From: Chryseobacterium gotjawalense
GTDB lineage: Bacteria > Bacteroidota > Bacteroidia > Flavobacteriales > Weeksellaceae
Direction: 5' to 3'
DNA length: 64,000 bases
Assembly: GCF_030012525.1 (NCBI RefSeq)
Contig: NZ_CP124855.1
Location: forward strand, 496,001 to 560,000
The position numbers and the translations under genes were made by a program. Shown here piece by piece: positions 55,863-59,150 of this stretch (position 1 is its first letter; each line of letters opens with the position of its first letter). The notes beneath the pieces are model-generated. The model ran no database searches and was not told where the DNA came from. It saw only the letters and a program-made list of their open reading frames with translations.

Positions 55863-56681
55863 TTACTTGAGCAGGTCCAGGAATTCCTGTTCATCCAGAA
55901 TCTCGATTGTTCCGATGTCCTGGGCTTTTTTCAGTTTACTTCCGGCCTTTTCGCCAACCACCAGATAATTCAGATTTTTAGAAACCGCGGAGATATTTTT
56001 GCCGCCGTGTTTTTCGACCATTTCTTCGGCTTGTTCGCGAGTGAAAAGGCAGAGTTTTCCGGTGAATAAGAAGGTTTTGTTATCAAGTAAATTTGAACAA
56101 CTTGATAAAAGATTATTTTTATTTACATTAATTAATGAAACAGAACTTGATTTTTCTTTTTTGATTCTTTCTTTAAACTGATATTCAAAAGCTCCATCAA
56201 TGAGATGATTGAATAAATAACCGCAAACAAACGCATCATCTAAAGCATTATGATAATTATTTTGTTCAATTTTGAAATGCTTTGCTAAAGTTGAAAGTTT
56301 ATAATTTTCAAGATTAACCTTTGTCTTTGAAATTGAAAGAGTACAAAATGTTCTATAAGTGGGATGCGGAATATTATAAAAGCTTAAAGTTTTCTCGAGT
56401 ATAGCAATATCGGTTGAAGCATTGTGAGCAATAATATTTTGATTGTGGAAAAAACCTTCAATTTCATTCCATATCTCACAGAATTCTCTTTCATTTTGAA
56501 CATCTTCCAAATAAATTCCATTTATCCTGGAGTTTATTGGATTAAACTTTAGGTCGATTGGCTTTATTAGAGAATAGTATTCAGAGATAGGTTCTCCATT
56601 TTTAAATTCAACTATTCCGATTGAACAAGGGATATGTCCATAAGAAGTTTCAAAATCTAGTGCAATAAAACTTTCAAGCAT
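55863..56681 (-). CDS. DnaQ-like 3'-5' exonuclease with C-terminal BRCT domain
   Basis: A 272-residue protein. Residues 1-170 are a DEDDh exonuclease with D9 and E11 (ALDFETSYG), D91 (HNASTDIAIL), and H144/D149 (YHNALDDAF). Residues 197-272 form a BRCT domain 64% identical (49 of 76 by hand count) to that ending the neighbouring LigA. Base composition jumps at the domain border: about 17% GC in the 60 nt at 56101 against 40% in the 60 nt at 55921. The BRCT part therefore looks like the native ligA tail, to which the exonuclease has become fused. It starts 9 nt after ligA. Confidence 0.85.
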   Translation of the reverse strand: MLESFIALDFETSYGHIPCSIGIVEFKNGEPISEYYSLIKPIDLKFNPINSRINGIYLEDVQNEREFCEIWNEIEGFFHNQNIIAHNASTDIAILEKTLSFYNIPHPTYRTFCTLSISKTKVNLENYKLSTLAKHFKIEQNNYHNALDDAFVCGYLFNHLIDGAFEYQFKERIKKEKSSSVSLINVNKNNLLSSCSNLLDNKTFLFTGKLCLFTREQAEEMVEKHGGKNISAVSKNLNYLVVGEKAGSKLKKAQDIGTIEILDEQEFLDLLK

Positions 56682-57785
56682 TTGTAATAATTATAGATTA
56701 ATCAAATTTAAAAATTCTTCTTCTGTTATTATGTTTACGGTTCCTATATCTTCTGCTTTTTTGACTTTACTTCCGGCATTTTCGCCTGCAATTAAATAAT
56801 TCAAATTCTTGCTTACCGCTGACAAATTACGACCACCATTTTCTTCAACTAATTTTTGAGCTTTATCACGTGTAAATTTTGTTAATGAACCGGTAAACAA
56901 AAAAGTCATATTATTTAGTAAGTTTGAGACTGGTTCTAATTCGGAATTTAATGTAAACTGTAAACCTGCTATTTGCAGTCTACCTAATATCTCTTGGTTT
57001 TTTTCTTTAGAAAAGAAATCAACGATACTTTCTGCTATTTTATCACCAATATCCTCAACGCTTGCAATTTCAGGAATTGACGCATTAATCAAATTATTAA
57101 TGTTTTGAAAATGAATTGCTAACTTTTTAGCAACTGTTTCTCCTACGTGTTTTATACCGATAGCAAATAATACTTTATCAAAGGAAATTTCTTTCGATTT
57201 CTCTATAGATTTAATAATAATTTCTGCAGATTTTTCTTTTATACCAACTCTGCTTCTATCAGAAATACTCGCTATAAAAGCTTCGAAATGTTTGTCATTT
57301 CTGAAATCATTAATTTTTAGAATTTCATCAATATAGTTTAGTGAATTTAAAATTGAAGATTTATCATCAAATAAGTTGTCCGTTTTTATGCAAAAGTATT
57401 TAGGGAATTTTAATTGTAAGATGTAATTTAGAGATACATAATTATCAATTGAATTAAAATCAGAATAAACAACATTCTTTTTTGCTTCTAGAATGTGTTT
57501 CTGAAATTTCACTAATTTCTTATTATCAGAAGAAACTTTAATATCTGCAATTTTGTCTATACATTTTATTTCGTTCGATAAATCTTCCGCTTCTTTCACA
57601 GTTAAATTCCCCCAACTTTTTGACAATGCAAAAATTGCTTTCGATAAAACGACTTGCAGTTCATTATTAAATTTAATTCCAGAATTATCATTTTCAAGCC
57701 ATTTCTCAAGACCTATTATTTCTTCTTTTTTTAGATTATATAGATCTGCATAATTTGAAATTATATTATTGTGAAATAGTAAATC
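56085..57785 (-). other. AT-rich inserted or exchanged block within ligA
   Basis: In 60-nt windows counted by hand GC is 17-18% at 56101, 57301 and 57721, about 28% at 56881, but 40-43% at 55921, 57781 and 58441. The step at about 57,785 happens within one line of sequence, inside the ligA frame. The block carries the distal half of ligA with an extra 150 codons and the exonuclease domain, and its left edge coincides with the start of the second BRCT-coding segment. This fits acquisition by recombination between two ligA genes. Confidence 0.65.
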
Positions 57786-59150
57786 AATAGTTCCTCCTCC
57801 CAAACCTTCAATGTCCATGGCTTTCCGGCTCACAAAATGTTGAATTCTTCCAATTATTTGTGGCTTACAACCATTTTCATTCGGACAGAAATGAATCGCC
57901 TGATCTTCAGTTCTCACCAGTTCCGTTCCGCATTCGGGACAGTGCGTGATGTATTGAATTTCTTTGTTTTCGGGATTTCTTTTTTCTAAATTAATTCCTA
58001 CAATCTTTGGAATAATTTCACCGCCTTTTTCAACATAAACAAAATCATGTTCATGCAAACCGAGTTTTTTAATGATATCTTCATTGTGCAAACTGGCTCT
58101 TTTAACTATGGTTCCAGCCAATAATACCGGTTTCAGATTCGCAACAGGCGTAATTGCGCCGGTTCTTCCAACTTGATAAGTCACGGATCGTAATTGTGTT
58201 TCTACCTTTTCCGCTTTGAATTTGTAAGCCATTGCCCAACGAGGTGATTTGGCGGTGAAACCCAGTTTTGACTGCTGCTGAATTGAATTTACTTTTAAAA
58301 CAATTCCGTCGATTTCAAAAGGAAGTTCATGCCGGTGCTGATCCCAATAATTAATGAAGTCTTTGATTTCATCTAAATTCTTACATAATCTTGCCTGCTC
58401 AGAAACGTTGAAACCCCATTTCCTGGCATTTTGCAAGAGTTCCCAATGCGTTTCTGCCGGAATTTCCGAAGAAATAAACTGATAGAGAACGGCTGAAAGT
58501 TTGCGCTTGCTCACTTCTCCCGAGTCCTGCATTTTCAAACTGCCTGACGCGGTATTTCTAGGATTCATAAATAAGTCCAAACCTTCTTCTTCGCGTCGGA
58601 GATTTATTTTATCAAAGTTTTTTCGGGTCAGATAAATTTCCCCCCGCATAAAAAACTGATGGGGAAAGTTGCCTTTCAGTGTTAAAGGAATATCTGAAAT
58701 CGTTTTCACATTCGCTGTGATTTCGTCGCCCTGAAAACCGTCGCCACGGGTGACCGCCTGTTTCAGTTTTCCATTTTCGTATAAAATAGAAATTGAAGCG
58801 CCATCATACTTCAGTTCAGCTACAAATTCTACGGGTTCATCAATGGTTTTGATAATGCGTTTTTCCCAGTCTTCTAAATCATCGAAATCATAAGAATTAT
58901 CCAAAGAATACATTCTGAATTGATGCTGAATGGTCGGAAAATTCTTGGTGATTTCACCACCAATACGCAAAGTAGGAGAGTTGGGGTCGTAAAATTCGGG
59001 GTACGCTTTTTCCAACTCCTGAAGTTCCTTCAATTTCAGATCAAATTCGAAATCTGAAATAGTAGCTTCATCTAAAATGTAGTAATTATAATTATGCTGA
59101 TGAAGTTCCGCACGCAGTTCTTCAATTTTTTGTTGGATGTTTTCGGACAT
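56691..59150 (-). CDS. ligA: NAD+-dependent DNA ligase, chimeric with an insertion
   Basis: An 819-residue ligase, against the usual 660-700. The NAD-handling and adenylation domains are normal, with catalytic K114 in AELKYDG; the OB-fold and zinc finger (C404, C407, C422, C428) follow. After GLEKW at about 483 some 150 residues without known motif are inserted, then the helix-hairpin-helix resumes at about 639 (KSAEIIIKSIEKSKEISFDKVLFA). A BRCT domain covers 743-819. No intein motifs are present. The half after about residue 455 lies in a strongly AT-rich block. The exonuclease-BRCT gene follows 9 nt later in the same operon. Confidence 0.93.
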   Translation of the reverse strand: MSENIQQKIEELRAELHQHNYNYYILDEATISDFEFDLKLKELQELEKAYPEFYDPNSPTLRIGGEITKNFPTIQHQFRMYSLDNSYDFDDLEDWEKRIIKTIDEPVEFVAELKYDGASISILYENGKLKQAVTRGDGFQGDEITANVKTISDIPLTLKGNFPHQFFMRGEIYLTRKNFDKINLRREEEGLDLFMNPRNTASGSLKMQDSGEVSKRKLSAVLYQFISSEIPAETHWELLQNARKWGFNVSEQARLCKNLDEIKDFINYWDQHRHELPFEIDGIVLKVNSIQQQSKLGFTAKSPRWAMAYKFKAEKVETQLRSVTYQVGRTGAITPVANLKPVLLAGTIVKRASLHNEDIIKKLGLHEHDFVYVEKGGEIIPKIVGINLEKRNPENKEIQYITHCPECGTELVRTEDQAIHFCPNENGCKPQIIGRIQHFVSRKAMDIEGLGGGTIDLLFHNNIISNYADLYNLKKEEIIGLEKWLENDNSGIKFNNELQVVLSKAIFALSKSWGNLTVKEAEDLSNEIKCIDKIADIKVSSDNKKLVKFQKHILEAKKNVVYSDFNSIDNYVSLNYILQLKFPKYFCIKTDNLFDDKSSILNSLNYIDEILKINDFRNDKHFEAFIASISDRSRVGIKEKSAEIIIKSIEKSKEISFDKVLFAIGIKHVGETVAKKLAIHFQNINNLINASIPEIASVEDIGDKIAESIVDFFSKEKNQEILGRLQIAGLQFTLNSELEPVSNLLNNMTFLFTGSLTKFTRDKAQKLVEENGGRNLSAVSKNLNYLIAGENAGSKVKKAEDIGTVNIITEEEFLNLINL

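What the first reader, a model, noticed from the sequence alone, without database searches (positions are those of the whole stretch)
55863..59150. Chimeric ligA: a sharply bounded AT-rich block carries the ligase half and an exonuclease, leaving the old BRCT tail on the exonuclease
GC drops from about 43% to 18% within one 60-nt line at about 57,785, inside the ligA frame, and rises again at about 56,085, where the exonuclease meets its BRCT domain. The two BRCT segments (55863-56093 and 56691-56924) are 64% identical in protein. The simplest history is that native ligA recombined with foreign DNA carrying ligA' plus a DEDDh exonuclease, so that the native 3' end now forms the tail of the incoming gene. 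A selfish or defensive role for such a replacement module would be new.
Basis: partly seen in the sequence, partly recalled or inferred. Interest (0 to 1): 0.8.

Follow-up and report, generated by a model that had tools for sequence, protein, structure and literature searches.

The report
Mobile cassette that rewrites DNA ligase
In this bacterium about 1.8 kb of foreign DNA has replaced the middle of the DNA-ligase gene, supplying a new, longer ligase end and a gene for a predicted DNA-trimming enzyme that now carries the host ligase's old tail; the same cassette sits in the ligase gene of eight genera, where it likely spreads by recombination and perhaps serves repair or phage defence (untested).

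Summary
The closest relative (G017) has an uninterrupted 666-aa ligA. Its 5' part matches the window up to 57,878, and its last 225 nt match the exonuclease's BRCT tail (55,863-56,087) and run on collinearly downstream. About 0.41 kb of native ligA was exchanged for about 1.7-1.85 kb of AT-rich DNA: a LigA C-half with a ~150-aa insert, then a DEDDh exonuclease. The same pair sits at ligA in 15 genomes of eight known genera plus one unplaced MAG. Empty-site pairs in Flavobacterium, Lutibacter and a marine family show the same exchange. LigA N-halves follow the host (carriers as one clade rejected, AU p=1.8e-59); C-halves do not reject one clade (p=0.73); 45 of 51 exonuclease tails group with host ligA BRCTs. 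Left edges vary and no integrase lies in the cassette, so homologous recombination inside ligA is the likely route. Zunongwangia (6 of 6 genomes) is an exception: its exonuclease tail is not native-like. Function is inferred only: the two products are predicted to work together at DNA nicks, in repair or in defence against invading DNA.

The parts
57879..59150 (-). Native 5' part of ligA (aa 1-424): adenylation domain, OB fold and the start of the zinc finger
   Evidence: 94% nt identity to uninterrupted ligA of the closest relative G017; Pfam DNA_ligase_aden, OB and ZBD
57785..57878 (-). Start of the foreign block: rest of the zinc finger, with host-like GC but diverged sequence
   Evidence: Identity to G017 drops from 28 of 30 to 18-21 of 30 nt per bin from 57,890 down; GC 39.8%, GC3 25.8 for aa 425-455
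57231..57701 (-). Module-specific insert of about 150 aa (LigA aa 484-640) that splits the helix-hairpin-helix region
   Evidence: Gap in the five native ligA shown in the alignment; conserved in carriers (A3); predicted folded, mean pLDDT 78.8 alone; no clear relative among solved structures
56700..57230 (-). Module HhH and module BRCT of LigA (aa 641-817)
   Evidence: HHH_2 and BRCT; module BRCT 61% to the exo tail and at most 62% to the natives compared
56088..56681 (-). Exonuclease domain and linker (aa 1-198) of the DEDDh exonuclease; RNase_T aa 8-157
   Evidence: Pfam RNase_T 69.8 bits; D9 E11 D91 H144 D149 conserved in 109-114 of 114 rows
55863..56087 (-). Old 3' end of native ligA (BRCT), now the tail of the exonuclease; 55863-56027 is 98% identical to the relative's ligA end
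   Evidence: 87% aa identity to native LigA BRCT of G017 against 61% to the BRCT of the window's own LigA
56682..56690 (-). 9-nt gap between the ligA stop and the exonuclease ATG; in 9 of 11 carriers measured the genes overlap by 4 nt

Best explanation
A 1.7-1.85-kb AT-rich cassette has replaced about 0.4 kb of native ligA between the zinc finger and the BRCT end, so that the host now encodes a ligase with a foreign, longer C-half and a predicted DEDDh exonuclease tailed by the host ligase's own displaced BRCT; it likely spreads between species by homologous recombination inside ligA. Shown: the exchange at base level in this genome; the same exchange in Flavobacterium, Lutibacter and a marine flavobacterial family; host-following LigA N-halves and, in most carriers, host-following exonuclease tails; a module-following LigA C-half and exonuclease domain. 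Inferred: that crossovers in ligA's conserved 5' part and in its BRCT carry the cassette in, with no integrase of its own, for example after natural transformation. Predicted, untested: LigA and exonuclease are co-translated and act together at nicks. The native BRCT would bring the exonuclease to the same DNA that LigA binds, where it would remove 3' ends that the ligase cannot seal. The scattered, AT-rich, often exchanged pattern would fit defence against invading DNA as well as repair.
For: Empty against occupied sites: window vs G017, 409 bp native replaced by 1,696 bp by blastn ends; F. glaciei-like G187 vs G423, 379 by 1,668 bp; G195 vs G290, 422 by 1,789 bp; Lutibacter L046 vs G1330, 363 by 1,676 bp. 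GC sandwich repeated in the two Flavobacterium carriers (N-half 34-35%, C-half 24-26%, exo 24-26%, tail 33-35%). Trees: N-half, 36 carriers and 43 natives, carrier label needs 13 changes, at least 9 forced by well-supported branches, one clade rejected p=1.8e-59; C-half without insert 2 changes, one clade not rejected p=0.731; 45 of 51 exo tails lie in supported sets with native LigA BRCTs, tails as one clade rejected p=1.7e-5. Exo tail nearer to a native LigA BRCT than to its own LigA's BRCT in 8 of 8 non-Zunongwangia carriers compared: 87/61, 88/52, 83/48, 70/52, 77/50, 67/51, 75/51, Lutibacter 62/53 (69/49 by blastp); for G1278, G1273 and G1293 the natives are from other genera of the family. 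LigA and exo adjacent in 15 of 15 carrier genomes. DEDDh residues kept; low dN/dS in Zunongwangia (insert 0.041, exo 0.056, linker and tail 0.108). ComEC-type competence gene present.
Against: Zunongwangia: 6 of 6 genomes carry the cassette, yet the exo tail matches no native ligA BRCT well (42% against 35-36% for its own LigA BRCT), so tail capture is not universal; six of 51 tails (two Zunongwangia, P0134, P0135, P0136, P0183) lie outside the native sets. Tail distances do not follow the N-half clearly better than the C-block: 0.42 against 0.31 for 10 loci, but 0.39 against 0.45 for 15 pairs. In Lutibacter part of the module LigA HhH-BRCT region (4448-4963) is also 72% like native ligA, so the module edges are blurred there. 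BRCT trees rest on 84 columns and many forks are open. Tree counts cannot by themselves tell gain from loss. Left edges from blastn ends are approximate outside the window. dS is near saturation (medians 0.87-1.41). No vehicle was seen: the exonuclease was not found near-identical in phage or viral contigs, nor the LigA C-half in plasmids. Flavobacterium johnsoniae was reported not competent under the conditions used for Riemerella (start of abstract, PMC7965970). Nothing here tests activity, interaction or phenotype; two ATP-dependent ligase-type genes are also present.
Confidence: 0.72

Rival explanations
1. The pair is an accessory repair or ligation-proofreading module: the exonuclease trims mismatched or damaged 3' ends at nicks and the longer LigA seals them; its patchy spread reflects ordinary homologous exchange of a useful allele.
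For: Both products belong to DNA metabolism families; translational overlap in 9 of 11 carriers measured; low dN/dS and presence in all six Zunongwangia genomes. LigA BRCT aids DNA binding (abstract of PMC10504179).
Against: Rare and scattered in most groups sampled (1 of 36, 1 of 101, 1 of 52), AT-rich against the N-half in the seven carriers measured, which is unusual for a housekeeping allele.
Confidence: 0.4
2. The pair is an anti-phage or anti-plasmid module: the exonuclease digests invading DNA at nicks while the altered ligase protects or marks host DNA.
For: Horizontal, patchy, AT-rich pattern; exonuclease part matches PADLOC candidate PDC-S48 (83.7 bits, best stretch aa 19-167).
Against: The PADLOC match covers the generic DEDDh part best, and that candidate is itself only predicted; the locus is ligA, not a defence island; no phage data.
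Confidence: 0.35
3. A selfish replacement element: by owning the 3' half of the replicative ligase gene it cannot be lost without restoring native ligA, and it gives the host nothing.
For: Loss by simple deletion would remove the LigA C-half (inference); high apparent turnover (13 label changes in the N-half tree).
Against: No mobility gene in the cassette; catalytic residues conserved in both products and low dN/dS point to work done for the host.
Confidence: 0.15
4. An old exonuclease-BRCT gene stood beside ligA, and its BRCT was homogenised with ligA by gene conversion; no cassette moved.
For: DEDDh-BRCT proteins exist elsewhere (NF004844; phage relatives at 30-34%).
Against: In carriers the LigA BRCT is itself non-native, so it cannot be the template; the native relatives compared lack the exonuclease at the locus; LigA halves have conflicting trees.
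Confidence: 0.04
5. Assembly or binning artefact.
For: Many relatives are metagenome proteins; one database protein (P0235) looks like a chimera with adapter-like sequence (the adapter label is recalled).
Against: The window's genome is one contig of 3.27 Mb; the architecture recurs in 15 genomes, including other single-contig ones (G356, G516).
Confidence: 0.01

Closest known systems
Rhs C-terminal displacement (Jackson et al. 2009, PMC2935791; abstract read) and orphan cdiA-CT/cdiI modules (PMC3150448; passages read)
   Same: A conserved N-terminal part of a host gene receives a laterally acquired C-terminus, proposed for Rhs to enter by homologous recombination, and the old C-terminal end is displaced downstream.
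   Different: There the gene is a toxin-delivery protein with toxin tips and immunity genes, and old tips stay as separate fragments. Here the gene is the NAD+-dependent ligase, the cargo is a DEDDh exonuclease, and the displaced end becomes a domain of the cargo.
Integrative elements that insert in a gene and supply its new 3' end (for example e14 in icd, SCCmec at rlmH; recalled, no call)
   Same: The incoming DNA restores an intact reading frame of a conserved host gene.
   Different: Those have a recombinase and fixed attachment sites (recalled). This cassette has two ORFs of 80 aa or more only, left edges that vary, and removes about 0.4 kb of the native gene.
DnaQ/DEDDh exonuclease with C-terminal BRCT (NF004844 / PRK06195; phrog_192; PADLOC PDC-S48)
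   Same: Same domain order: DEDDh exonuclease then BRCT.
   Different: 178 bits against a cut-off of 373 for NF004844; beside an insert-bearing LigA in the 15 carriers seen; in most carriers the tail is of the host ligA type.
Canonical LigA (NF005932)
   Same: Catalytic and zinc-finger motifs kept; 783 bits over the cut-off of 369.
   Different: About 150-aa insert in the HhH region and a foreign C-half.

Membership tests
NAD+-dependent DNA ligase LigA | Adenylation, OB, zinc-finger, HhH and BRCT domains in order | tested here: met
   Pfam and NF005932 matches; KxDG residues in at least 90% of rows and zinc cysteines invariant in A2 (40 rows, 27 carriers and 13 canonical)
DnaQ-like DEDDh 3'-5' exonuclease | D, E, D, D and H catalytic residues | tested here: met
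   D9 114/114, E11 114/114, D91 109/114 (5 E), H144 113/114, D149 113/114; the rows are the window and the best 113 of 353 hits
DnaQ-like DEDDh 3'-5' exonuclease | 3'-5' exonuclease activity | not testable with these tools
   No assay
NF004844 (PRK06195) DEDDh-BRCT equivalog | Score over the curated cut-off | tested here: not met
   178.4 bits against 373
Rhs/CDI-type C-terminal displacement | Laterally acquired C-terminus displaces the native one, which stays downstream | tested here: met
Rhs/CDI-type C-terminal displacement | Toxin tip and immunity gene on a delivery protein | tested here: not met
   Cassette encodes a ligase C-half and an exonuclease only
Integrase-borne element in a target gene | Recombinase gene inside the element | tested here: not met
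   Of ORFs of 80 aa or more, only the two genes lie between the junctions
Integrase-borne element in a target gene | Fixed attachment site | tested here: inconclusive
   Left edges differ: LigA aa 424 in the window, about aa 445, 461 and 474 in others by blastn ends; resolution is poor outside the window
Known anti-phage system (PADLOC) | Match over the length of a described system | tested here: inconclusive
   PDC-S48 83.7 bits, best stretch exonuclease aa 19-167, 2 stretches; the system is itself a candidate
Known anti-phage system (PADLOC) | Protection against phage | not testable with these tools
   No phenotype data

The most novel reading that the evidence does not exclude
A new class of mobile cassette that lives only inside the DNA-ligase gene ligA: it travels between genera by recombination through ligA itself, hands the host a foreign ligase C-half, and turns each new host's displaced BRCT into the targeting domain of its exonuclease, making a ligase-nuclease immune device that checks nicks and destroys invading DNA.
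Probability: 0.3. Interest if true: 0.95.

Novelty: categorically new. Interest (0 to 1): 0.8.

Why it matters
LigA is an essential, conserved enzyme (established knowledge), and it is not expected to be a landing place for mobile DNA. Here the same small cassette rewrites it again and again, in most carriers recycling the host's cut-off BRCT as part of a nuclease. If the pair proves to act together, it gives a testable bacterial link between nick sealing and 3'-end removal, or a defence that hides in a housekeeping gene. It also warns that single-gene trees of ligA can mix two histories. It fails a membership test for the displacement and the integration systems compared, which is why it is rated categorically new although the recombination step resembles Rhs tip exchange.
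Full report
WHAT IS THERE. On the minus strand the window encodes an 819-aa LigA (56691-59150) followed after 9 nt by a 272-aa DEDDh exonuclease with a BRCT tail (55863-56681). Domain scans give a full LigA (NF005932, 783 bits) and RNase_T plus BRCT.

EMPTY SITE IN THE CLOSEST RELATIVE. Among 36 genomes of the genus, only the window's has the insert-bearing LigA; the other 35 have native ligA in open frames of 669-718 aa. 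The closest, G017 (LigA N-half 94.7% identical over aa 1-455), has an uninterrupted 666-aa ligA. By blastn the window matches it over 59190-57784 and again over 56087-50001, 92-94% identical. Codon by codon, identity is 94% up to aa 424 (57,878) and 58% over the next 56 codons. From the 3' end it is 161 of 165 nt up to 56,027, then 42 of 60 nt to 56,087, then 4-6 of 15 per bin. So the exonuclease's last ~75 residues are the old end of ligA. The 70% zone suggests (inference) that the donor's exonuclease already had a BRCT of this genus and that the last crossover fell near 56,028.

RECURRENCE. Protein searches found 30 LigA of 799-882 aa (the window's own included) and two shorter ones with the same insert among the 120 best of 3,352 hits, and 353 exonuclease relatives (120 listed). 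Whole-genome and named-contig searches gave 15 carrier genomes, each with both genes side by side: the window; L044 (exonuclease cut by the contig end); L045; L046 (= G1133, Lutibacter); G187 (its contig length and the name given for P0174 point to Flavobacterium glaciei); G195 (= L068); six Zunongwangia-type genomes (one of them matching L047, Z. pacifica); G1278; G1273; G1293. These are eight known genera (codes g1, g4 with L045, g20, g99, g357, g497, g502, g517) plus one unplaced MAG. Frequencies, from the rows listed: 1 of 36 in the window's genus, 1 of 101 in Flavobacterium (2 of the 101 had no match at all), 1 of 52 in the family of G195 (8 without a match), 6 of 6 in Zunongwangia, 6 of 299 in a sample of that family, two of them Zunongwangia (4 without a match). 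A profile of the insert found only the window's genome in 395 genomes of the class and 296 of the family; the sensitivity of these two searches was not checked.

THE SAME EXCHANGE ELSEWHERE. G187 against G423: native ligA matches up to LigA aa ~461 and again from exonuclease aa ~205 onward; 379 bp of native ligA stand where 1,668 bp stand in the carrier. G195 against G290: 422 against 1,789 bp. Lutibacter L046 against G1330: native up to 3921 and again 5598-5828, 363 against 1,676 bp; here part of the LigA HhH-BRCT stretch (4448-4963) is also 72% native-like. The GC sandwich is repeated in the two Flavobacterium carriers; it is weak in Zunongwangia, and the rise at the tail is absent in Lutibacter and G195.

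SEPARATE TREES. N-half (aa 1-400; 36 carriers, 43 natives, 77 different rows): carriers are scattered among natives, 13 changes of the label, at least 9 forced by supported branches; one clade is rejected, p-AU 1.8e-59. Within the window's genus several metagenome carriers pair with different native species, for example P0003 with L029 (100) and P0006 with L035 (82). C-half without insert and BRCT: 2 changes, natives of each of the three groups form clades (100, 98, 98), carriers as one clade not rejected, p-AU 0.731. BRCT (84 columns, 130 rows, 51 of them tails): 14 tails sit with 14 natives of the window's genus (98), 30 with the 12 Flavobacterium natives (96), one (G195) with native L262 (96); six lie elsewhere: two Zunongwangia, P0134, P0135, P0136 and P0183. 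Tails as one clade are rejected, p-AU 1.7e-5. Tail distances are not decisive by this measure: N-half 0.42 and C-block 0.31 for 10 loci, 0.39 and 0.45 for 15 pairs, 0.58 and 0.55 for 13. So the LigA C-half and exonuclease domain travel together, the N-half belongs to the host, and the tail belongs to the host in most carriers by trees and empty sites.

EXCEPTIONS. In Zunongwangia the exonuclease tail is BRCT-like but only 42% like any native LigA BRCT tried; an old landing with a decayed tail, or an ancestral tail, would both fit. For G1278, G1273 and G1293 natives of the same genus were not fetched; their tails are 77, 67 and 75% like natives of other genera against 50-51% for their own LigA BRCT. 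Tree counts do not tell gain from loss; gain is inferred because natives form clean clades and carriers do not.

HOW IT LIKELY MOVES. The cassette holds no recombinase among ORFs of 80 aa or more. Left edges differ: aa 424 in the window, about 445, 461 and 474 in others, and in P0004, P0005 and P0007 the zinc finger itself is of module type. Tail junctions differ a little too: P0122 keeps an 11-residue stretch of the native pre-BRCT linker seen in native ligA of G008. This fits crossovers at any conserved stretch of ligA. A ComEC-type gene is present, and Riemerella species, also flavobacteria, are reported naturally competent, though F. johnsoniae was not under the same conditions (search listing and start of abstract, PMC7965970). 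No phage or plasmid vehicle was found in the searches made.

WHAT IT LIKELY DOES. Catalytic residues of the exonuclease are kept in 109-114 of 114 rows, LigA motifs are kept, and in Zunongwangia median dN/dS is 0.02-0.06 for LigA parts and exonuclease domain and 0.108 for linker and tail, with dS near saturation. In 9 of 11 carriers measured the exonuclease start overlaps the ligA stop by 4 nt; the window has a 9-nt gap and G1278 a 2-nt gap with a TTG start. This predicts coupled translation and joint work. LigA's BRCT aids dsDNA binding without being needed for sealing in D. radiodurans (abstract of PMC10504179), so a BRCT on the exonuclease would plausibly bring it to the same DNA. Whether the benefit is repair, defence or mere persistence is not decided. 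The insert is predicted to fold but has no clear structural relative. LigA is the only NAD+-type ligase found in the genome (the second match is the exonuclease tail), but two ATP-dependent ligase-type genes are present.

COMPARISON. [quoted passage not shown] The parallel covers the genetic step only. Six literature searches listed no paper on a ligA-exonuclease cassette.

Noticed in passing
L043 8390-8953 (G008 contig C38): A second, partial ligA 3' end (HhH-BRCT) in a genome with an intact ligA elsewhere, flanked by transposase-like sequence; probably an IS-linked duplicate.
   Followed up: partly
window 59190-59499; L291 5940-6998: The closest relative has a 352-aa membrane-transporter gene (cation-antiporter-like by recall) between ligA and the dehydrogenase gene; the window has only an unmatched spacer there.
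   Followed up: no
L249-L254 (Zunongwangia-like genus, six genomes): The cassette is in all six genomes, with a BRCT-like exonuclease tail that resembles no native LigA BRCT well in the two compared.
   Followed up: partly
phage records H1-H20: Temperate Staphylococcus and Streptococcus phages carry DEDDh-BRCT proteins covering nearly the whole query at 30-34% identity, some annotated as DNA ligase.
   Followed up: no
G000:C1:591322-591858 and 1660147-1660707: Two ATP-dependent DNA ligase-type genes (855 and 526 aa frames) in the same genome.
   Followed up: no
P0235: Database protein joining a transporter piece to a native ligA tail through what looks like adapter-derived sequence (by recall); probable assembly artefact.
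   Followed up: no
P0213 (474 aa): A relative of the exonuclease with an extra middle part between exonuclease and BRCT (precomputed PF21762 listed).
   Followed up: no
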